DNA from: Takashimella koratensis
Taxonomy: Eukaryota > Basidiomycota > Tremellomycetes > Trichosporonales > Tetragoniomycetaceae
Assembly (NCBI GenBank): GCA_003116875.1
Contig: BCKT01000001.1
Span: 2,351,486-2,415,485, forward strand
Reading direction: 5' to 3'
Length of the DNA: 64,000 nt
Shown here: positions 45,530 through 60,128 of the stretch, piece by piece
How the letters are laid out: every line of letters begins with the position of its first letter
How positions within the stretch are numbered: the stretch's first letter is position 1
Notes under the pieces: generated by a model
What the model was told of the DNA's origin: nothing
The model's database searches: none
What the model saw: the letters and a program-made list of their open reading frames with translations, nothing else
Position numbers and translations under genes: made by a program

Positions 45530-48500
45530 TCAACACCGCTCGAATACTCTAAACAGGTCGGGCAGATTAGCGATCTGCTTGATACTCCCCGCTGTTGACC
45601 TTGGCCAAACTGTTCGTCGAAACGAAGGGAAGAGCACATGTTCGAGTTGCCAAGTCTGGTGCTCAAGCTCCTCTTTCGTCGGGTCGGATGGGTCAAAATC
45701 GACATCGCTTACTGGGCCGGAGAGGGTTCGAGGTGAGTAGAAGAACGCCAGTTCACGAAGGAAAGTGTCGAAACATTCTTGTTCCGTTTCCCAGTTGACC
45801 TGAGTTCCAAGGCAGAGAAGGAAATGAGGTAGGCGATCGAGATTGGGAGTGTAACCCTTGAGCAAAAGAGGAATGGATTCGACCGCACCGTCTTCGGAGA
45901 GTGAGAAAGAAAAGTACTCGTCCAGCATCTCACTTTTGTCCATCAATAGGCGGACAATGTCCTGTAACACAAACCCAGTTAGTTACACTGAAATGTCTAA
46001 GACACAGACAAGTGCTGTAGCAAGTTGAGTGACTTACCTCAACAACATCTTTTATTGACAGCCCATTCTCCTCGATCCCGGGCTCGTCCTCGGCAGCTAG
46101 GCGGACCAGGTCGCGCAGTGCTGGCGCTGGCTCGAGCCGTAGCCTGTTCAAAGCGCCGAACTGTCGCAACCCCAATTGATAGAAATGTTCATCTCTGCGG
46201 ATCCGACGTCAGTCTGCTGCCTACTTTCCGAGCTGAACAGCACGACGCCAATCCCCAGACCTTCACTTACGCCAGCGCCGTGTGGTCGACGATGAACAGC
46301 TTGGTCGAGTGCTGCAGCACCGATTGACCAAGATACTTATCGACGAGTCCGACGAATGCGTGTTTCTGCATCACCTCGACCATTTCTGAGTTTCGACCAT
46401 CCGAGTCAGTCATGCACTCAAAACCCCACACCAGCAGTGACATACCTGGCGAAGCCCGTTTCTTGACTGCTCTCCTCAATTCGACGATACTCTCAAACTC
46501 ACACACACTCTCCTGCACCTCTGCCGACCGACCACTCTTCCCCACGTCCACGTCCCCCGCTTCCGCATTCCACATCGACCCAACAACCGCCCCGTCCTCT
46601 TCGTCCTCGTCGTCGACGTCGATTGCAGCACCAGGATCTCGGTAGTCCTCAATCGCTCGGCGCTTGGCGGGTCGACCGTCGCTGGGGTCTGGTTGGGTCT
46701 GAGTGAACGCAACGATCTGAGATGGGTCGATGACGGCCAGCATCGAGTCCAGGGTGCGGTTGGTCGGGTCCATACGGACTTTGTAATTGGGTGCGGGTTT
46801 ATGCACTAGGAGGAGGTTAGCAAGAGATGTCAAAATTGAAACCCGCGTACAGCGTGACTCACCCCTCTCGCGATCGCTTCGGTCAGCGGGGTCAGCAGCC
46901 CCAGGCAACAACGTCTGGACAGTAAACGTCCGTGAGACATTCGCATTCGCCAACGCACGATTAACGACGGCGACGATACTCTCGACAACCTCGTCTTCGT
47001 GTAGGAAGTGCACCTCCGATTTGGTCGGGTGGACGTTGACGTCGATCTTTGCTGGGTCGATCTCGAGACTGGTCACGGATGCAAGATACTTAGCTCAGCG
47101 TGGACAGTATGGTCTGCCGTAGCTCGAACCACTCACCTGAGGTAAACGAATGGCGAGGAGCCCTTGGGTAGGTACGCGGTGTACAGCGACTCGATCGCCT
47201 TTTTTATCTTACTTGACTCGACTAGTCGATCTGAGTTCATCAGCCTGCCTGCTCCTCCACTATATCGCTCAAAGATTGGGTAACAGCGACAAGACGCACG
47301 GTTGATGAACAAGATCCAGTTCCCCCGCCTTGACCAATTACTATTCGCGTTGCTCACCCAACCTCCACACTTTGCACCCAGCCCAGCGGGCTCGAGCTGC
47401 GTCTGAGGGACCTCTAGGAGCTCGTTGGCCAGGGCGGAGGTGTATAGCAGCGAAATGTTTTGGCGGGTCGTAGACCCCGCGGACGTTGAGATATCTGGCA
47501 GCGCTGTACCGGCCTAAGCTCTTGAATCAGCCTCGACCTCAGTGGGAAGAATGGGAGAGGGGATAAATGAAGCAAACCTTCTTGCACACCCAGCCAGCGT
47601 GCGGATTATGAACCGCATACTTGGTGATCACGTCAAGAACACGGTTATACTCATCCGAAGCCGACTTGAACGCCCGTTTCCGTAGCGGCATATTATAGAA
47701 CAAGTCCTCGACCTGGATATCCAGGTCAGCATAGATCCTGGCACAAGTAGGCGTCGTATGTGGGGAGATGAAGCAGGAACTCACGTTGATGATCGTTCCA
47801 TCATTTGCAGCTGCAGGTCGAGGGTCCGCTGATCCTGTGCCGCGTGCTACCAGCTCACCATCCGAATATGTTGCCCTTTACCCATTGTCAGCTTGCTCTC
47901 ACGCCCTGACCCTCCAGCCAGCCTTCCGCCCTCCGCCCTCCACGCCCACGCAGATACTCACTTCCACCCACACTCGTCCGCCCGCGTCTTCGTAATAACC
48001 TCCACATGCGCGCAATAACTGATACTAGCCAAGGCCTCGCCTCGGAACCCATAGGTATTGAGTTTCTGGAGATCCGAGAACTCGCGCAATTTTGAGGTCG
48101 CGTACCGCATACACAGGAGGGGCAAGTCGGATTTCTAATCAGTCATCAACAGATGTCTCTCTAGCTCGAACAGCAGATGGGCGAGGGAGCTTCTGAGTGG
48201 CTGAACGTACGTTGATGCCGTGTCCGTTATCGGTGATTTGGATGAGCTTGAGACCGCCCTCTTTAAGTGTGACTTTGACAGATGTTGACCCAGCATCGAG
48301 CGAGTTCTCGATCAGCTCCTTGATTGCGTTCGCGGGGCGGTGGATGATCTGCAAAGGTTCTGTCAGACAATTGATCACGAGCTCGACAGAAAACCACAAG
48401 CGACACCGCAGCTCCAGAGGATCCAGCGGGGACCAGGAGCATGAGCAGGAGATAGGCAGAGGGGAAGCACATAGCCTGTACCCGGAATGTGACGTACCTC

Positions 48501-48710: not shown

Positions 48711-49175
48711 GGTGAGGGTGAGGTCATGAGTCGCGTCGAGGGGAGGAAATTGAAATGTTCAGTCCGGAGTAATTTGAAACGACCCAGTCCATCATGTGAA
48801 CTGGAAGGGGTCATCCGCCGGTTGCAGGCTCTTTTCATGCTCGCAGGCGAAAGAAGGCGCCTTGCCGCACAGCCGACTCCAGCAGCGACTTTGCGTTTCA
48901 AACACACTTACACAAAGGGTCGGGGCGCATCCTTGAGCTGGAGTTCACATATAATGCCAGCTGTTGAAACGGACTGCCGTCTCATCCTTATTGTCTACAA
49001 CCATTGTCTATGCTCTCATCCTTTGAGTCGGAGTCAAACATTTTAGCCAGGGTGGATTTGGCAGGTGGTGGAGTGGTGTATGTCTCTCCCCGTTCAGCTT
49101 ACTTGGAATCGCCCTCTTAAGCAGCATTATTTACCACAGCTAGTTTTACCCACCCATTACAATTCAGCAGCAAAG
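48711..49175. promoter_or_regulatory. divergent interval, MLH1 / first small-family gene
   Basis: This holds the MLH1 promoter and the upstream region of the first member of the tandem small-protein family. A TATA-like CATATAATG lies at 48948-48956. A GTATGT donor at 49078 and an ATTCAG acceptor ending at 49167 suggest a 90-nt 5' UTR intron just before the start codon at 49176. The pseudogene copy has a similar GTATGTCT donor between its TATA box and start. Confidence 0.45.
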
Positions 49176-49583
49176 ATGTCCAATACCGAGACAGAGACTA
49201 GTAAAGAAGAGTTGACAGTTGCCGCCGGGTACTACAGGTATAAGACCTACCAAGGCCACTATTGGGGCTGCGAGACCAGCGGTCCATCCTCATCGTCTGC
49301 CTCGAAGTCAGCAGCCAGATCAGTGGCAGACACACTGGCTACTTTCTTCGAGACATGTGAAGAACAGGACTCCGAAAAAAGCCTTGAGCTAGCCAAGGGT
49401 TTGGTCCAAGAATCAAAGTACGCTTCATTATACAAGTTCAATTACATACCATGTGCTGTATCTCTGCATCGTTACCTCGATACTCTCAAGGCGCAGGACC
49501 CCGAATCGGAAACGCTAACAACTGCGGTAACGGAAGAGCCTGTGAAATCTGAACCAAAGGTGAAGACTGAAGGAAGCGTCTAA
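49176..49583 (+). CDS. tandem small-protein family, member 1 (type A)
   Basis: An intronless 135-residue protein of no family I recognise. The shared domain covers residues 12-108. It starts with a strand LTVAAGYYRYK and a second strand GHYWGC. An Ala/Ser helix (SAARSVADTLATFF) comes next, then an acidic turn, a helix LELAKGLVQESKY, an aromatic strand YKFNYI and a final VSLHRYLDTL. The tail contains two V-K-x-E motifs (VKSE, VKTE) that fit the SUMOylation consensus. No signal peptide or membrane helix is visible, so it is probably cytosolic or nuclear. The start at 49176 is chosen because the AAGATGTCC context and following length match other members; an upstream in-frame Met at 49065 falls in the probable leader intron. 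Confidence 0.75.
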   Translation: MSNTETETSKEELTVAAGYYRYKTYQGHYWGCETSGPSSSSASKSAARSVADTLATFFETCEEQDSEKSLELAKGLVQESKYASLYKFNYIPCAVSLHRYLDTLKAQDPESETLTTAVTEEPVKSEPKVKTEGSV

Positions 49584-50097
49584 GCGGCTTTTATATCGTC
49601 TTCCTCTAGGAACATCGGCGAGTAGAAGCTCTTGCGGGATATGGCAGAGAGAACATATGAGGTGATGGTTCATAGCAAGGGGGCATGCATTGCACTTGAA
49701 GAACCATCGTCTGCTTTGGTCACTCACATGAGGGAGGTCGGGAGCAGGCTAGCCACACTTGTCCGGCCTCGCCCTCCAAGAAAAAAGGCGTCATGACGCC
49801 CACCTCCAGCGGATACTTGGCCTTGCAGACATGTTTACAAGGGATGACTCCTCAGGTGTACGCCGGAGCTCAAAAATCCTTCCATCTGTTGGAACGGACT
49901 TCCGCTGGCTTCTCATCTTTCACAAAATATGTTTTGGTCGCTTCCTTTCGGTCGGTCGGCGTTGAAGGTTTTAGCTGGCTTGGTCCGTCGAAGCGACAGT
50001 CGACTGCAGCTCATATAAGCCCCTGGTATGTCTGCTCTCTCTCCTCAGCTTCACTGAGCGACCACCACAGCATCATCTGACAAACCAAACAGCAAAC
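49584..50097. promoter_or_regulatory. spacer and promoter of the pseudogene copy
   Basis: It holds a TATA-like CATATAAG at 50012-50019 followed by GTATGTCTGC at 50026, resembling the leader of member 1. The first half is the presumed 3' region of member 1. I see no gene. Confidence 0.4.
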
Positions 50098-50592
50098 ATG
50101 TAGAAAGTCGGCGACGTGACGGAGGTGACGGCAACAACATCCAACAATGTGACTAAACAAGTTGATAACCCGATAGCATCGAAGAGTACCCGAGAGGTGT
50201 TGTTGGTTGCTGCGGGGAACTACCATTACAAGAGCGAAGAAGGAACTTAGCAAGGTTGCGGTGCAATCGGTACTTCCCCCTCCGCAACCGCGAAATCGGC
50301 TGCTTCTTCCCTTCAATCCATCTTCAACGAATTCTTTGACGAGTGCGAGGAAGAGGATCCCGAAACCCTCCTGGGGTTTGCCAAAGATCTAGTCGTAAAG
50401 TCGGAGTACGCCGCTGATTTTGATTTCGAGTATTCTCCGTGCTGTGTGTCCTTGGGGAAGTATCTAGATGCGCGCGAGAAGCAGGAGAGCAAGTTGAACA
50501 GGTCTACTGCTGTGGCAAAGCCAGCGATATGTGAATCACCAGTGACCACTGAGAGGTCTCAAGCATCGGCGACAACTGAGCCTAGAGCTTAG
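50098..50592 (+). pseudogene. tandem small-protein family, broken type A copy
   Basis: This is a full-length relative of member 1, collinear through its domain (LLVAAGNYHYK, SAASSLQSIFNEFFDECEEED, FAKDLVVKSEY, FEYSPCCVSLGKYLD) and ending at 50592. It carries two in-frame TAG codons. One is directly after the ATG (50101-50103). The other is at 50248-50250, where member 1 has an aromatic residue of the second strand. There are no frameshifts, so the break is recent or the copy is kept by unusual means. No Met follows in frame to restart translation before the domain is lost. The context after the second TAG (CAA GGT) does not match the full TMV-type readthrough signal. An assembly error is possible but would have to occur twice. 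Confidence 0.75.
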
Positions 50593-51391
50593 GCTGAGTT
50601 AAATACTTTCGGTGATCGAGTGGCTATGAGAAAGTAAAATACTGGTTATGTAATGGGTATGCAGAGTGGTTCATGCATCGCGAGTCTGAACGCCTACGTT
50701 GGGCCCAACGAAATCCGTCCACTACTGTACAGTAGTACAGTAGGTGGCCCACCACTGTTAACTTGCCTTCTCAACGTCGAAAAGCTCGGCGGAAGTATCG
50801 TGGCGTAGCAATGAGAACATGTCGGGCAGTTGAGATTGCCAGTCGTGTTGGGAAGGTAGGTACGACAACCTGATGAAGATACTGAGAATTTGACCTTGGG
50901 AAGGGGGATAGGAAATAATCCACTTCGTCTGGCAGTTTGCGTATCAAGGTTGTTTGTGCACAGAGAGGCTGACGGAGCCTATTGCCTCTAGGCTCCTCCT
51001 TTCAGCTCGTCGTCTCTTACTCTGCCCGGACCATGCGCGTCTCTCACATTCCACCTCGTTCTCCCCCTATATGGACGACGACAAAGAGAGTCGGCTTCAA
51101 CTGACACTCGGCTCTACTTTGCCTCCATGACATAGGAGAAAAGCCGACCAAGTTTTCGACCGGGCGTATGGTACAAAGGAACCCAGCACTCAAGGCCTTC
51201 CGCGCTCAAGTCTCGGACTTATATTTATACCTTTCAACTGACATCCTGTTTGACTCCGGTTCGCTCCAAGTCCAAGACCTTGTCACGAGTTATAAGGCTA
51301 CCTATGGACCGCTTTTACTCGCCCCCCTCAAGTATTTTACTTATCTGATCAATCAGCGTCCTACGTACAGCGCATCAAACAGATCAACAAC
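50593..51391. other. spacer before member 2
   Basis: About 800 bp, relatively AT-rich on the left. It contains the inverted repeat listed separately and, at 51228-51240, a TATA-like CTTATATTTATAC that probably serves the next gene. I could not recognise a decayed copy of the family in it. Confidence 0.4.
50719..50747. repeat. perfect 9-bp inverted repeat hairpin
   Basis: CTACTGTAC at 722-730 of the 50-kb block pairs exactly with GTACAGTAG at 735-743 around a 4-nt loop, and flanking CCA/TGG extend the stem with one bulge. It lies between the pseudogene and member 2. It could be a transcriptional terminator, a protein-binding site or a foldback remnant. Confidence 0.7.
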
Positions 51392-51859
51392 ATGTCCATG
51401 GGTAAAGGAGAAGTGATTATTATTGGTGTTGGGTGGCAACATGACGTTGAAGGTGGGCATACCTACTACACCTGCCGCTCGAACTTACCTAAACCCTCAA
51501 AGAAGGCGGTCGAGGCGACAACAACGCTTGATACGTTGATCTCGAATGGTCTTGGAAGCTGGTGCCAGGATTCCGAAGCGCTCCTGAGAACTGTCAAAAG
51601 GGTTGTAGATTTCTCGGAATACAAGTCGCTTCCTTACAGTTACATGTCGGAAACAGAGGCATCGAGCAAGCACGCTGTCTCCTTTGCCAATGGCACGTGC
51701 GAAAAGGAAGGGTGGAGGATCCTGCGGCCGAACTCTGGCTCTACCGGAAGCGACGCCACTCAAGGGAGCACCATGACCGTGACGTATGCAAAGCCGTTTA
51801 GTGACTGCCCGATATCGTATTCATCCAAATTGGGTAACTTGACATACCCGAGGGATTGA
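51392..51859 (+). CDS. tandem small-protein family, member 2 (type A)
   Basis: An intronless 155-residue protein. The shared domain spans residues 5-95: strand EVIIIGVGWQHD, second strand GHTYYTCRS, a helix with KKAVEATTTLDTL, a second helix LLRTVKRVVDFSEYKSL matching LVQESKYASL of member 1, and an aromatic strand PYSYMSE. The C-terminal 60 residues (Gly/Ser/Thr-rich, ending LTYPRD) have no counterpart in the others. No signal peptide or membrane segment is visible. A second Met two codons in could also be the start. A TATA-like element lies about 155 nt upstream. Function is unknown. Confidence 0.7.
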   Translation: MSMGKGEVIIIGVGWQHDVEGGHTYYTCRSNLPKPSKKAVEATTTLDTLISNGLGSWCQDSEALLRTVKRVVDFSEYKSLPYSYMSETEASSKHAVSFANGTCEKEGWRILRPNSGSTGSDATQGSTMTVTYAKPFSDCPISYSSKLGNLTYPRD

Positions 51860-52471
51860 GCGAACGAGATGCAGTGTCGTTTAAACCTCTAGGTGCGTTC
51901 TATGGCTGGCGATACGATATCACGTTACCATTCTCTATGCACCGTTATTTATTTATTTATTCAGCCCATGGAATTTCTGTATACATGCATGACCTGGGGA
52001 AGTATGGCTGTCCAAGGACTATGAGTTCTTCATCCAGGACCACTGACTGCATCAGTCGCGAGCAGTGAGCCGAATCAGAGTGGATTACGTGGTATTTAAA
52101 GGACTATGGCAGATCTGGCATGTACCATTGACGGCAGAGCGCAAAAGCCGCTGAGAGACTCTAGCCAACTTCAATGCTGACATTTACGCCCGAGGATAAT
52201 GGTGGTTGAAGGATCACACTGGCTGTGAGATTTGGCGGGACAATCATGCAGAGACCGGCTGCCATTTCGCTCCCAAAAATTTCGGGATCTGGATTCAGCA
52301 GAACCTCCTTTTATCATGGATAAGCTCCTTTCATTCTCGGATCCTATTTGTTGACCAGAGACAGTAGGCGGGACAGATGACAAGCCATTGGGGGGGCTTA
52401 TATGATAAGAGTCTTACGGGATTCCCCCACAATTTATTCGCAACGGTTACGCACGCGATATTGCTACAAAC
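51860..52471. promoter_or_regulatory. spacer and promoter of member 3
   Basis: It contains a TATA-like CTTATATGATAAG at 52398-52410, about 72 nt before the next start. A TTATTTATTTATT tract at about 51948-51960 could be an AU-rich 3' UTR element of member 2. I see no gene. Confidence 0.4.
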
Positions 52472-53161
52472 ATGTCCGACATGACACCAACCCAGTCGAT
52501 CGTTGATCCCATGCAGATAGATGAAGGTGGCGACATCATCATCATTTCGACGGCCTGGGATTCTGGTATCCCAGGCGGATTTATTGACTGCAGATGGAAG
52601 AAAGACGACCGCAATGCAAGCCGCGAAGACGACGATATTACGTATGTGATCGAAGATGAGCTCAAGCGGCATCTGAACCCTGAAGAGGTTCAAGGTAAAA
52701 GCAACGAAGAGATTCGTAACGAAGCTCTCAAGTTCGTTTTGAGTCGCAGATACCCCGACGGTACGCACATCCAAGCAGAGCTCGCCTCTCACGATGACAC
52801 TCTGGCAGGATGGCTCAAGGCCACGGAAGACCAAATGGAAGCTGAAGGCCTGCTGAACCCCAGCATCCCAACCATTGTGGTGTGTGCATATCGCAGTCAA
52901 GAGAACAAACAGAATTTCCTTACCTGCAATTGGAAGGAGGATAACGTGGGCTACCCCGCCATCGAAGGTTACAGTGTTGAGAATTTTAGCAACGATTTAG
53001 GAGAATATCTACGCTCGACTTCAATGGAAACGCAGAAGAGTTTTGCGTTGTTCAGGGCGTACACAACGCTAAAGTCATTCCGCCTTGTCAAGACTCAATT
53101 TCCAGGCTGCTCGTTCAAGGTCATGGAAGAATCGGAAGCCATGCAACAGTACTTGGAGTAG
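52472..53161 (+). CDS. tandem small-protein family, member 3, two fused domains (type B)
   Basis: An intronless 229-residue protein made of two copies of the family domain. Copy 1 (about 20-112) starts DIIIISTAWDSG, has the second strand FIDCRWKKDD, and a helix around YVIEDELKRHL. Copy 2 (about 132-229) starts TIVVCAYRSQ, has FLTCNWKEDN, a helix NFSNDLGEYLRS, and ends with FPGCSFKVMEESEAM. Both replace the YY-C signature of type A by C-x-W-K. Copy 2 is strikingly close to member 6 (FSWKDDKEG, FSDELGLFLSS, RFPGSAIMVMDEEA). No secretion or membrane signals are seen. The fusion suggests that the domain works in pairs, perhaps as a dimer; that is inference. Confidence 0.78.
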   Translation: MSDMTPTQSIVDPMQIDEGGDIIIISTAWDSGIPGGFIDCRWKKDDRNASREDDDITYVIEDELKRHLNPEEVQGKSNEEIRNEALKFVLSRRYPDGTHIQAELASHDDTLAGWLKATEDQMEAEGLLNPSIPTIVVCAYRSQENKQNFLTCNWKEDNVGYPAIEGYSVENFSNDLGEYLRSTSMETQKSFALFRAYTTLKSFRLVKTQFPGCSFKVMEESEAMQQYLE

Positions 53162-53974
53162 GTTACATCGCTGGCAGCTGGTACTGAGAAAATGATCTGA
53201 GGGTCATCTTCCCGAGGATACTATATTCAGGTAGATTGGTGAATATCAGTGACCTTGAATACCGAATATGCCGGCGATCCGCAGTTAGTTTGATGATATG
53301 TCTCTTACCATATGCCGAAAGCACAGCTTTCTAACGCAAGTCGAACCATGTGTGATTTTTCCTAATCCGTGGCTTCCGTCAACAGCTACTCATGTTCTCG
53401 CCGAGAGTGAGTTTGCTTTCGCCGGCATCCCTCTATCTTTGTGGACAGCATTCATCCAGAAAGACGAACAATTTGTCGTGTTCTCTATCGTCGGCATTTC
53501 TGTACACCGCAGGGATTCTTCCCCTTGATGAAGTCGTGAGTTCCGCCTAAGATGAGAAATTTGGACACTGGTAGGGTTTGAAGCTTAGACTACGCTACCA
53601 GCATGGGGGGGCGAATTTAGCATCAGATACCTACCGCACACCCGCTCTCCGTTTGCCTTTTCTTGGCTTGTATGTCGGGGTATGAATGTCTCCTTTTCCT
53701 GGCGCTTAGGTGGATGGAGGTAAGAAGGCGTCTCGTCTCGCCCACCTCGGCTACAGCTGCGCTCCCCAAACCACGACCGAATTCACCCCCGAGGTTGCAG
53801 TCGAGAAAGGAACCATCACTTGCGCTGCGCCTTCCACCCACAAGTCTCGGCATCATAAATCCATACCGTTTTGTCGTATTTTCCGGTAGTTGTTTGACTC
53901 CGATATCCTCGAAAGTCAGCAAGGTTTGACGTGAGCTGAAAGCTGCCTAAAAATCCGTCACTCTTTCTTCGTCT
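53162..53974. other. spacer before member 4
   Basis: About 810 bp without a supported gene. The open frame at 53298-53528 shows no similarity to the family and no homology I recognise. A weak CCTAAAAAT element near 53947 is the only TATA-like candidate for member 4. Confidence 0.4.
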
Positions 53975-54556
53975 ATGGCAAGCTTTCCTCAACCAAGAAA
54001 TCCAGAACCCCTTAGTGACCGTACTGTAATAGCAGTGACGATGTCGACACTAAGCGATAAAACATCGACCAAACAAGCAGCGACAATGTCGACTGCGACC
54101 GGTACAGGCAAAGAGACACTGAGGGTAGGTGGTGGGTGGTACGGTGACAGTGAGACAGGACATGGATATTACTGTTGTCTATCAACCAGCAAGGAGCCTT
54201 CGGAGGCGGCAAGGACAGCCTGCAAAGCTCTTCAAGACATGTTCCACAAGCGCCTTGACGGTTCCGAGGAGACTAATTCGCCGTCGATCCTTGACACTAT
54301 CGAAGAGCTAGTGCTGGAATCGCATTATGCTACGATATTCATATTTGAGTTCATGTCAGACAAGGAATCTCTAGAAAGTTATACTGCTTATCTCGAGAAG
54401 AAGAGACCCCTCTCATTGTCAACGACTGGGGAGTCCGGTCAATCAAAGTTAACCACTGAGAATAATGCAAAGTCAAACTCATGGCAAAGGTGGATGCCCT
54501 TCTTGAGCCTTAGTTCTCGTCCTCCCTCGAAAGCTGAGAAGGGAAGGAAACGTTGA
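53975..54556 (+). CDS. tandem small-protein family, member 4 (type A)
   Basis: An intronless frame of 193 residues. The shared domain starts near residue 48: strand TLRVGGGWYGD, second strand GHGYYCCLS, an Ala-rich helix (EAARTACKALQDMF), an acidic loop, a helix LDTIEELVLESHYATI, an aromatic strand FIFEFMSD and a final YTAYLEKKRP. Three in-frame Met codons precede the domain (53975, 54041, 54086). By comparison with the short leaders of members 1 and 2, the start is more likely at 54041 or 54086. The C-terminus adds a Ser/Lys-rich tail with RWMPFLSLSSRPPSK. No secretion signal is obvious. Function is unknown. Confidence 0.72.
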   Translation: MASFPQPRNPEPLSDRTVIAVTMSTLSDKTSTKQAATMSTATGTGKETLRVGGGWYGDSETGHGYYCCLSTSKEPSEAARTACKALQDMFHKRLDGSEETNSPSILDTIEELVLESHYATIFIFEFMSDKESLESYTAYLEKKRPLSLSTTGESGQSKLTTENNAKSNSWQRWMPFLSLSSRPPSKAEKGRKR

Positions 54557-55168
54557 ACTGGGTAGAAGTATTCGTCTTAGGCATGCATTGATTGAAAGGT
54601 CAGGCTGGGGAGTCTGAACTCTCCCACACCCAAGTAGCGAGTATTGTGCTTCCTTTGGACCGCTTCCGCCGATTCCCTCTCCGGAAACGGTGGAAACTGT
54701 TGGAACAGAGACTGCGACGGAGACAAATCTCAATCGAGGCCCATCTGCGACAGCGCAGTGACGTCAGAAGCCTAGAAATCTTACTTCTTTGGAATTTCGG
54801 GGACATCTTGGCGTTTGAAAAGAATGCTGACCGTGAAATATGACATGGAAAGCGCACACAACAACTTCCCCCGAGCATGGCCGGGATCCCCGAAAAATCC
54901 TGGAGAAAGGACTCGTGTTTGGGAGCATCGTGTTTCAAGAAGTCTCCTTTGCCGACGCAGCTTTCGCGCAACGCAGAAACATCTCGTCTTTCTTTTGAGG
55001 ACGGAGAAGCAGCATAACGGAGAGAACCCGTTTGAAAAATGGACGAGCTTGGGAGCCCATCTATATAAGGGTAGGAAGGTAGAAGGTCAACATCTCTTCT
55101 CCTCTTCTTCTTGAACAGCGGCTTTCGCAGGAAGATACTCACTACACTCCAAGCTCACATCAACGTAA
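54557..55168. promoter_or_regulatory. spacer and promoter of member 5
   Basis: A TATATAAG box at 55072-55079 lies about 95 nt upstream of the next start codon and is the clearest TATA element of the cluster. The Arg-rich open frame on the opposite strand looks like a chance product. No other gene is seen. Confidence 0.5.
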
Positions 55169-55600
55169 ATGGCAGACTCTACGCAAGCCAGAGAAGACGC
55201 GAATACGGGAAAGCAGGCAGAGGCAAGCAGTGAGCGCGGATCTGTTGTTATCTCTATCCATTATGATGGAACGGAGTTCTACAACAACTGCGCATGGAAA
55301 CATCCCCTAGCTGAAGGGTCCGCTGAAGATGAAATTACCCTCGACATGAACTCTGCGGTGACAGACTGCCTCTTCACACTTTATGAAAGCGGTACCAGAG
55401 ATCTTGAGACCCTTCGGACGAAAACGAAGGATTTCGCAGAAACCATTTGGCCGAAGTATCGCTTTGAGCTCGCGACTCCGCAAGTGGCTTTAGACGAGTA
55501 TACCGTCGCTATGATTATAAGGGATCAAGAAGCCGAGATGGACAATCAGGGCGATGCCGATGCACCTGACCAGGCGGCGACTGAGGACAATGAAGCGTAG
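55169..55600 (+). CDS. tandem small-protein family, member 5 (type B)
   Basis: An intronless 143-residue protein. The domain spans about residues 24-118: strand SVVISIHYDG, second strand YNNCAWKHPL with the C-x-W-K signature, an acidic loop, a helix SAVTDCLFTLYES, a second helix LRTKTKDFAETIWPKY, and a strand RFELATP. It is closest in plan to the first domain of member 3. The last 25 residues are acidic and Ala/Asp/Gln-rich. No signal peptide or membrane helix is seen. It has a strong TATA box and a 95-nt leader. Function is unknown. Confidence 0.72.
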   Translation: MADSTQAREDANTGKQAEASSERGSVVISIHYDGTEFYNNCAWKHPLAEGSAEDEITLDMNSAVTDCLFTLYESGTRDLETLRTKTKDFAETIWPKYRFELATPQVALDEYTVAMIIRDQEAEMDNQGDADAPDQAATEDNEA

Positions 55601-56212
55601 TGAGGGAGGTAACGTTTATCGACTAAAGTGGGACTGCGAGCAGAGCTGTTCGTAATCCGTAAATCGAGGTGACATGTTACTCTCCTTTGATGCTCTCGTG
55701 ATGAGTCACAATATCCAGGGGGTTAGTTGCTGATACTCATTCTATATATGCAGTCTTTTTTTTCGGAGGACAAAATGCGGCCCCCGAGGCTTTGCATTAT
55801 GTGTGACTTCGAAAGTTCCGCATAGTGCACTATGCCTTCACAGCAAGACCTACCGATCATAGCGTGGATTTCAATCCCTCTACATATCCCGCAGAGCTTA
55901 TATGGGCTCTTTTACCTTCAGTTAGATCCTACCTTTCAGTACGGGTCTGAAAGGATAGGCTGTGACGCGGCCGAGCCCGGGCATGGAGGCATATGTCGCA
56001 CTCAAGGGAATGTCTCAGCTGCCGGTCAAAGGCACTGTACTGTACTCTCACCCACCAACAACAGAGCGCTCGGTAGAAAACTGAGCGTAGTCGACACCTG
56101 GTGGCAACCGTTCATATAAAGAGCGACTTGAGCGGCTGTATGTTTGTATTCCAGACCGCATCCACGACGTCCAACGCCGTATACAAACTCTTAACTATAG
56201 TACAAACCCACC
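55601..56212. promoter_or_regulatory. spacer and promoter of member 6
   Basis: A CATATAAA box at 56113-56120 lies about 95 nt before member 6. A second TATA-like site at 55742-55750 lies about 85 nt before an ATG at 55832, which opens a 95-codon frame without family similarity. This could be the relic of another copy's promoter, or chance. Confidence 0.4.
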
Positions 56213-56659
56213 ATGAGCTCTTCCCGAACCAAAGAGAGAGACCAACAGGAACCCCAGGAAGGGAGCAGCCGTCCGACCCTTCAAGTATACGTATACTATG
56301 ACTCGGAGGAGTCACAGGGTCATCTTGGTTTCAGCTGGAAGGATGACAAAGAGGGTGTACCCTTCAATACCCGCTACACTAACAAGATGTTTTCGGATGA
56401 GTTAGGACTATTTCTCTCTTCGTCGCTTGTCATGAGTGAGAAAGAGTGCTTCACAACTCTCCGTTCCCTCACTGAAACGCAGTCAAGCAGTCTAATACGC
56501 AAGCGCTTCCCAGGGTCCGCCATCATGGTCATGGATGAGGAAGCTTGCAAGAATGATTACCTCATGAAGCGTCCTCACTATCAAGCAAGAAGAAAGGCTC
56601 GTAACGCGCGGGAGCAGAGCACCAAGACGACAGATTCCGATGAGACGAGCTTTCAGTAG
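56213..56659 (+). CDS. tandem small-protein family, member 6 (type B)
   Basis: An intronless 148-residue protein. The domain spans about residues 20-118: strand TLQVYVYYDSEE, second strand HLGFSWKDDKEG, a helix FSDELGLFLSSSL, a second helix CFTTLRSLTETQSSSLI, then RFPGSAIMVMDEEA. It matches the second domain of member 3 almost throughout, including VM-D/E-E, and probably shares a recent ancestor with it. The C-terminal 30 residues are basic (ARRKARNAREQS) and could be a nuclear-localisation or nucleic-acid-binding tail; that is inference. No secretion signal is seen. Confidence 0.75.
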   Translation: MSSSRTKERDQQEPQEGSSRPTLQVYVYYDSEESQGHLGFSWKDDKEGVPFNTRYTNKMFSDELGLFLSSSLVMSEKECFTTLRSLTETQSSSLIRKRFPGSAIMVMDEEACKNDYLMKRPHYQARRKARNAREQSTKTTDSDETSFQ

Positions 56660-57151: not shown

Positions 57152-60128
57152 ATGTCCATCGGCAACAGGTCCTACCAACAGGACTTGGAGGGATGGCGAC
57201 GAACGGCTTCTGCAAGGTCCACCCCCTGGACCGCAACCGACAGCCCCGAGGTGGCTGCCGTACCCAACACCGCTCCCTTCTCGATTCCCGCCTCGGTCAG
57301 TTTCTCTCAGACCCAGATCAGTCCCAGAAAACTTATACTGGGAACATTTTTGAGGATCTCGACCAGGCGTGGCACCACCGTGGTCTGCATCACACTTCGT
57401 CCCGAGAAGGGAATTCCAACAGAAGCTGACTGGGAGACCATTCACCCGCTTCTCAAGTTCGTTCCAGACTTGACCAAGCATGTTGCAATTGGTGGCAGAA
57501 GATGGAGCAAAGGGAGGCAAATAGTGACATCCAGAGTGTGTGCTGGTCTCAAAAGCATCTTGGAATCTCGAATTTCTCTCACCCACACAGTCAGGCCCAT
57601 GCGAGGTGAGGAGCGCCGAGAGTTCAAGAATGTCGCCATACGTACCGATGACGCGAGGCTCATCACGACAGCTGAACCGCACATCGTCAGGCAGCATTCC
57701 ATGGTCAGCTTCTGCCTCGGGGACTATTGGGCAGACATGGGAAGCGATACGATCCCCGACTCAGCCGACGCGAGGATCGACCCCCCCCAGGGTGAACTGT
57801 GCCCCATACCGGCTCTTTCCATTCCCACGGGGAATTTGGCCGCTCCCGAAGACGGAAGAAACGCATACCAGCGAAAGGCAGGCGATTTGCTCTTTCCCCG
57901 CCAGGCCTCCATCGGCGTCACGGGTGTGAACTTGTCCGGACAGAGGATTCTACATGTGGGTCTTTGCGCTCTCCGTTCAACTGGAATCTGCCACGTCACG
58001 ATCCATCGGTTCCACCGCGATACCACGACCAAAGACTCGGAGACGTGTGATAGGCTTCTGAAAATCGCTGAGTCCTTCGTCGCCACACGCTTCGAGTCCG
58101 TTGTCGCCACACGACTTGACGACAGAGCCACACGCACGTTTCTCAGAGAGCTTGAAAAGGAACTGCACCGCTATGCAGGCAAAGGTTATACCACCAGTAT
58201 TCTATCCCGGCTTAAAACGTCGAAGCTTCTCCTACGACACCTTCGGGAACTGGGAACGGCATCCGAGGAAGAGAGTGCAGAGTTGAGCGAGTACATCGAC
58301 GACAATGACCCTGCTGAACGGGGTCGGACGCGGTTCAGGGATACACCGGACAGATTTGATTTATCCGCTGACCGTGAGTTGATCCCAAGTTTTCTATCTC
58401 CCATTTCATCTTATCGGCAAATTGTTACCACAACCTTGTATATCTTGCTATACTAAAGCGCTGAAGCTAGTTTCTTTCCCGTCGTTCAACCCGCGTCCGA
58501 GCCCACCGATTGACTCCCCATTTACTTTTGAGGGAGCTCTTGGAGCAGACCACATCCAGCCAAGGACGCTACGGCTTGGCACTTTCTTGCGATCGCGTGG
58601 GGCAAACCGCCCCTCTATGCTCACCGTCTTTCTTCGCCCAGATAATTTCCAGAACATCCATGATGACTGGGAGGTGATCGAACCCCTGCTTCGCAGTGCT
58701 CCAGACATCTTAGCCAATGCCACCTCCTACACCGCCCAAGAGAACGACCCCCTGAAAGACATTGCCGTGAGGCTGGGATTTCACTTCAACGACAGCTTGA
58801 AATGCCAAGACCCTCCTTCTCACTTCGTGAAGCTCATGAATAAGTATGAAAGGTTGCGACTTAGAGCTTCATTTCGAACATACGACAATGAGTGGGCGAC
58901 GACCTCTTCCGAATGCCGTATCTCCAAGGAACACTGCATGTCGAGATTTTGGATAGAGAATTATCGGGCAGCAATGTCTCCCGAACAGTACGAGAGGGGT
59001 GCTCCGGTTTTTGCCAGGGAAGGGCAGCTCGACGAAGAGGATACCCCGAACATCCGTGAGTTGCTGGCCAGGTCCGATTATTCAGATCGTCATTTCACCG
59101 ACAGCGCCTGACATCGGATAATTACCCTGACAGCATTGCTCGACCTCGACTCTTTCCCTCCTTTGGTCGCTGGGACCTCTTCGTCGACAGTTCCCGAGTG
59201 GCCAATCCGAGAAGACGGATGTCCCAACTCTCCCACCGACCCGTTCATCGTCGAGTCGACAACCCATCAATGCGAACCTTCGGCAGCACCAGAGCACGAC
59301 CTCGAACCTACGGACAAAGAAGATTCATTTTCGACGGCAGACACGCCGGAGTCGTTATCGGGCGCTGACGAGCAAAACGAGTCCCCGCCGCCCGAGACGA
59401 AAGTTGCACCAAAGGCTACCTCACAGACGACGAAGCCGAGACTGATCCCGTTGTACAAGGCCCATCAAGAGTCACAAAGAACAATGAGCGCGGTCAAACT
59501 GCAGACAGAAGCTTCTGGATCTAGTACCAACATGGAGCAGGAGCCGCTCACGTGGGACTCACTCATTTCACGTCCTCCAATCGACCATTGGGCGGATGTC
59601 TCTGACGATGAGCTTCCACCTCCCGACGACGTCGACGTCTCCTCAAGTCACGCTGGAACAATGAAGAATCCTGGGAAGCCAGGATACTCCGACACCTGGA
59701 CGCAGACGATTCCTGACAACAATCTGTCGGACAAATACGTCGACCCTGTCCCGACATTCACAGGGAACCGAGACGATACCCACAGATGGGATTCGGTGCT
59801 TCCTGAGCGCCGGTCCCCCCGTCCCGTCAAGCAGTCCACCGATCACGAGAATGTCGACGACGGATGGACACCGGTAGCCTCCAAACGCGAAATCCAGAAC
59901 CGTCGCCGAGACGAACGTCATCGACTCTTCGACAACTCGGCACCCACTCGTCCGACCACCGGGCGGTGGGCCCGACCAAGCCCTAGCCACGGTCAGCCCC
60001 CAGTTCAATGGCACAGGACCCTGCGAGAGATCTCTCCCGAGCGGAAATCGTCGAATGCCGCTGAGGGTCGGCGCTGCTTCGATTATCGCTCGTCTACGTA
60101 CGATCCAAACGCAACAACGTGGCGCTGA
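57152..60128 (+). CDS. 933-residue protein with a triplicated unknown module
   Basis: I recognise no known family. Three exons (57152-58373, 58471-59055, 59134-60128) with GTGAGT donors join in phase. A module of about 45-50 residues occurs three times. Copy 1 (59-106) contains LILGTFLR, then VVCITLRP, then WETIHPLLKFVPD. Copy 2 (265-309) contains RILHVGLCALR, then HVTIHRF, then DRLLKIAES. Copy 3 (439-487) contains LRLGTFLR, then LTVFLRP, then WEVIEPLLRSAPD. Similarity of copies 1 and 3 continues another 90 residues to H-x-M-x-x-F and DYWADM / NYRAAM. The last 330 residues are acidic, Ser/Pro-rich and disordered, with short Trp-containing motifs (WDSLIS, WADVSDDE, DGWTPV) and an Arg-rich end. 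It lies directly downstream of the small-protein cluster with a similar TATA spacing. Confidence 0.75.

What the first reader, a model, noticed from the sequence alone, without database searches (positions are those of the whole stretch)
48948..56659. Tandem cluster of an unrecognised small-protein family
Six intact intronless genes and one pseudogene, all on the + strand, encode eight copies of a divergent domain of about 90-100 residues. The shared plan is a hydrophobic strand, a Gly/Asp turn, a second strand carrying Y-x-x-C or C-x-W-K, a helix, an acidic loop, a helix ending in a Ser-x-Tyr-like motif, and an aromatic strand. Pairwise identity is low although the genes are neighbours, which suggests rapid divergence. 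None carries a signal peptide or membrane helix. I know no family with this pattern. Tandem arrays that expand, diverge and decay are typical of conflict or allorecognition genes, but that role is inference.
Basis: partly seen in the sequence, partly recalled or inferred. Interest (0 to 1): 0.88.

Follow-up and report, generated by a model that had tools for sequence, protein, structure and literature searches.

The report
Orphan small-protein gene array in fungus
A yeast-like fungus carries a row of six small genes and one dead copy that seem to share one compact protein shape and have no recognised relatives; they are probably an old family of intracellular binding proteins whose job is unknown.

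Summary
In detail: six intact ORFs and one pseudogene at 49176-56659 (+) carry eight divergent domain copies of 94-101 residues. Pfam, NCBIfam, PHROGs and PDB sequence searches give nothing significant. Predictions for g1 (mean pLDDT 79) and g6 (62) show the same order, strand-strand-helix-helix-strand-helix. By sequence there are two groups, A (g1, pseudogene, g2, g4) and B (g3a, g3b, g5, g6; g3a and g5 linked weakly). The A-B link is weak but present. Two further tandem members lie on another contig, so the family is not confined to this locus. The fungus is a Tremellomycete beside Trichosporonales on a long branch; the protein database returned no close relative of its MOT1, so 'orphan' is provisional. 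'Rapid divergence' is not supported: synonymous sites are saturated, replacement sites less changed, and two pairs were copied with their promoters. Nothing here favours conflict or allorecognition specifically. Best guess: an old family of soluble intracellular binding domains kept by birth-and-death, faintly resembling the RNase J C-terminal domain in fold.

The parts
49176..49583 (+). g1, 135 aa, one domain (group A); upstream in-frame ATG at 49080
50098..50592 (+). pseudogene, one group-A domain with two in-frame stops (second codon and 50248-50250)
   Evidence: 43% identical to g1 over 120 codons
51392..51859 (+). g2, 155 aa, one domain (group A)
52472..53161 (+). g3, 229 aa, two domains (g3a about residues 19-118, g3b about 131-228), group B
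54041..54556 (+). g4, 171 aa, one domain (group A); alternative ATG at 53975
   Evidence: ORF
55169..55600 (+). g5, 143 aa, one domain (placed in group B, weakest member)
   Evidence: ORF; summed score to the seven other copies reached by 0 of 1000 shuffles; hold-out rank 1 with group B, E 1.5; own-genome search finds only itself
56213..56659 (+). g6, 148 aa, one domain (group B)
   Evidence: ORF; fold model
48826..49175 (+). upstream region of g1, homologous to that of the pseudogene
49748..50097 (+). upstream region of the pseudogene, homologous to that of g1
51042..51391 (+). upstream region of g2, homologous to that of g4
53691..54040 (+). upstream region of g4, homologous to that of g2

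Best explanation
An old family of small soluble intracellular proteins, probably restricted to this lineage. Each carries one domain (g3 carries two) that is predicted to fold as three strands and three helices in the order strand-strand-helix-helix-strand-helix, between polar tails. The family grew by tandem copying, at least twice together with the promoter, and lost one copy here to stop mutations (birth-and-death); two members sit at a second locus on contig C2. SHOWN by sequence: the ORFs, the pseudogene, homology within groups, promoter homology of two pairs, and protein-level constraint. LIKELY: that groups A and B are one family. PREDICTED: the fold. INFERRED: since no catalytic motif is evident and hardly any residue is shared by all copies, the domain most likely acts by binding partners or itself, with the tails setting location. 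Partner and process are unknown.
For: ORFs, pseudogene; homology; promoters of g1/pseudogene and g2/g4; pN below pS in 6 of 6 pairs; same element order in g1, predicted from group-A rows only, and g6; profile of g3a, g3b, g5 and g6 ranks the two adjacent C2 ORFs 1st and 2nd of 1832; Cys near the end of strand 2 in 8 of 10 copies, 1.4 expected; the window was set after seeing the sequences; no signal peptide or membrane helix by hydropathy; no known domain or enzyme family.
Against: The A-B link is weak: the group-A profile ranks the six B and C2 members 31st to 1164th, the reverse ranks A copies 8th to 444th among about 2620 ORFs; hhalign E 0.22; a profile of all seven window domains does not list c2b. 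g6 model confidence is low. No expression data. Binding is inferred from the lack of anything else, and lineage restriction rests on a database without close relatives.
Confidence: 0.5

Rival explanations
1. A divergent branch of a known family whose kinship is beyond the reach of the searches made here.
For: Profiles were built from 2-10 sequences; protein search needs exact five-residue words; the best listed MOT1 relative in the database is only 50% identical, so intermediate sequences are missing; no library of predicted cellular structures was on hand.
Against: Best family matches are weak and each in a single member: Pfam E 0.079, PHROGs 0.035, NCBIfam 0.089; no PDB sequence match at E 10; no significant Foldseek match.
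Confidence: 0.25
2. Conflict or allorecognition genes: variable intracellular proteins that tell self from non-self or oppose parasites, expanding and decaying under diversifying selection.
For: Tandem array, low identity between neighbours, one pseudogene.
Against: pN is below pS in 6 of 6 pairs, though saturation leaves recent selection untested; no known recognition, death or receptor domain in the six intact ORFs or the adjacent gene; the same pattern fits any old tandem family.
Confidence: 0.13
3. [quoted passage not shown]
Confidence: 0.12

Closest known systems
RNase J C-terminal domain (Pfam RNase_J_C, PF17770)
   Same: Heads the structural second-look list for both models; three-stranded sheet with two helices (PMC3997798 passages)
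   Different: No profile match; stand-alone small fungal proteins rather than the tail of a bacterial nuclease; an additional C-terminal helix in both models
Lineage-specific tandem gene families evolving by birth-and-death (a kind of gene family, recalled)
   Same: Tandem same-strand copies, promoter-including duplications, one pseudogene, no recognised domain
   Different: Copies are very old (synonymous sites saturated) and the family also sits at a second locus
Fungal NLR/HET-type non-self recognition genes (recalled; PMC4986451 seen only as a search listing)
   Same: Intracellular, duplicating and decaying genes
   Different: No Pfam domain of any such gene in the six intact ORFs; no polymorphism data

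Membership tests
RNase_J_C (PF17770) | Match to the family profile | tested here: not met
   Pfam scan of the six intact ORFs, no hit; PF17770 against the whole genome, no match at E 10, controls ring in 7 of 14
RNase_J_C (PF17770) | Same fold | tested here: inconclusive
Fungal NLR/HET-type recognition genes | HET, NACHT or NB-ARC domain (recalled definition) | tested here: not met
   Pfam scan of the six intact ORFs and the adjacent gene finds none
Allorecognition genes in general | High polymorphism between strains | not testable with these tools
   One genome only
Secreted effector or small secreted protein | N-terminal signal peptide | tested here: not met
   Polar N-termini by hydropathy, 8 of 8 proteins including the two C2 members; no dedicated predictor
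KH domain, type II (considered because of a similar element order, recalled) | GxxG loop between the two central helices | tested here: not met
   Inspection of the eight window domains and c2a/c2b; no Pfam match in the six intact ORFs
Tandem lineage-specific family (birth-and-death) | Tandem paralogues with duplication and pseudogenisation | tested here: met
Tandem lineage-specific family (birth-and-death) | Absence from related lineages | tested here: inconclusive
   No hit for g6 (13 candidates) or the seven-sequence alignment (1050 candidates) at E 10, but no close relative in the database

The most novel reading that the evidence does not exclude
A previously undescribed intracellular domain family, present at two or more loci of a deep Tremellomycete lineage, works as a variable recognition module (self/non-self or anti-parasite), each tandem copy binding a different partner through the variable faces of one conserved fold.
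Probability: 0.1. Interest if true: 0.75.

Novelty: new member of a known kind. Interest (0 to 1): 0.36.

Why it matters
It adds an apparently undescribed compact domain family and a second locus that helps to search for more of it. If sister genomes show the array in other states, it becomes a case for measuring how a fold is kept while sequence similarity falls below detection. A role in recognition would be of wider interest, but nothing here shows it.

Tried and rejected
Family and sequence searches: Pfam, PHROGs, NCBIfam and PDB sequences gave nothing significant for the copies; PADLOC was not searched and the pseudogene was not given to Pfam. Protein database: g6 alone 13 candidates, the seven-sequence alignment 1050 candidates, none at E 10. 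Control: a MOT1 exon of the window gave 1063 hits at E 0.001 among 7997 scored candidates, best listed identity 50% (24).

Own genome: ten protein searches with family members, one with the adjacent gene (62), one with PF17770 (90). Outside the array only c2a was reached (E 0.133 from g3, 0.253 from g3b); c2b by no search except its own, so ten copies is a lower bound. The weak C5 hit (E 0.218) showed no ORF with the plan and was dropped.

Structure libraries: PDB, second look, viral proteins for the g1 model only: no significant match, which does not show that the fold is new. The adjacent gene was considered as a larger relative: family profile E 0.024 and 0.11 in a two-sequence search, not evidence.

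Own errors: one search used a wrong frame for g1. In one search the pseudogene ORF fragment stayed among the decoys by oversight; it is a member, so 'rank 2' there often means behind it. Leave-one-out over all ten copies: nine rank 1st or 2nd, g3a 4th (behind that fragment and two decoys). The profile contained the hits it found, so its scores prove nothing; one search is the test. MAFFT puts the second helix and third strand of A and B in different registers; I aligned those by eye only.

Papers: search listings in 82 (none), 83, 84, 92, 93 (none), 95; passages of PMC3997798 in 94. I claim no absence from print beyond these searches.

Full report
What is there. The window is G000:C1:2351486-2415485 of a genome of 25.1 Mb in 24 contigs. 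Between an MLH1 gene (Pfam hits on 46267-47091, minus strand) and an unrecognised gene from 57.15 kb lie six ORFs and one pseudogene, all on the + strand. They hold eight copies of a domain of 94-101 residues as I delimited it. GC is 49.1-49.9% in the three 2 kb blocks from 50 to 56 kb, while the other 29 blocks of the window range from 51.2 to 61.9%.

A second locus. A genome search with g3 gave a weak hit on contig C2 (E 0.133). That locus holds two adjacent same-strand ORFs, L031:1465-1815 (c2a, 116 aa) and L031:2401-2916 (c2b, 171 aa), with the same plan by eye. As a test I fetched C2:1-196200 and searched its 1832 ORFs with a profile of g3a, g3b, g5 and g6 only: c2b ranks 1st (E 0.0062), c2a 2nd (0.049), the third scores 0.88. 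With g3b and g6 alone the order is the same (0.0044, 0.055, then 3.2). Against this: with the group-A profile c2a ranks 17th, with all seven window domains 6th, and c2b is listed in neither. The region was chosen because of c2a's hit to g3, so c2a's rank is not independent; c2b's is, apart from adjacency. Ten copies is a lower bound.

How far is it an orphan? Two protein-database searches found nothing at E 10, but a MOT1 exon of the same window finds its best listed relatives at 50% identity, and a MOT1 tree of 19 chosen database proteins puts the fungus beside Trichosporonales on a long branch (support 0.99). A weakly conserved small protein could have homologues there and escape a search that needs exact five-residue words. 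'Unrecognised' stands; 'lineage-restricted' is only probable.

What it most likely does. The proteins have no signal peptide or membrane helix by hydropathy and no recognised catalytic domain, and they keep a plan with few shared residues; g3 carries the domain twice. I infer a binding or self-associating module whose tails set location (basic in g4 and g6, acidic in g5, by inspection). I put this reading at 0.5, an undetected branch of a known family at 0.25, conflict or allorecognition at 0.13 and an RNase J-like role at 0.12. Tandem orphan families are, to my knowledge, common in fungi, so the interest is moderate.

Noticed in passing
L031:1465-1815 and L031:2401-2916 (G000 contig C2, about 100 kb from its start): Two adjacent ORFs that follow the same domain plan: a second locus of the family, between ORFs that look by eye like a vesicle-tethering protein and a class I myosin.
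   Followed up: yes
57152-60128: The next gene on the right has no Pfam match and holds a second repeated domain (57152-58372 against 58485-59110, 26% identity over 162 residues, E about 1e-15); the exon limits are my guess. Another unrecognised, internally duplicated protein beside the array.
   Followed up: partly
50001-56000: The array lies in the window's lowest-GC stretch (49-50%, other 2 kb blocks 51-62%).
   Followed up: no
L031:1835-1942: Directly after the stop codon of c2a a unit of about 54 bases is repeated twice in tandem (seen by eye).
   Followed up: no
49536-49580: The tail of g1 (EEPVKSEPKVKTEGSV) holds two matches to the sumoylation consensus (recalled motif), seen by eye.
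   Followed up: no
48826-56212: A simple TATA pattern lies 84-226 bases before the ATG of five of the seven genes (g1, pseudogene, g2, g5, g6; not g3 and g4); no chance level was computed.
   Followed up: no
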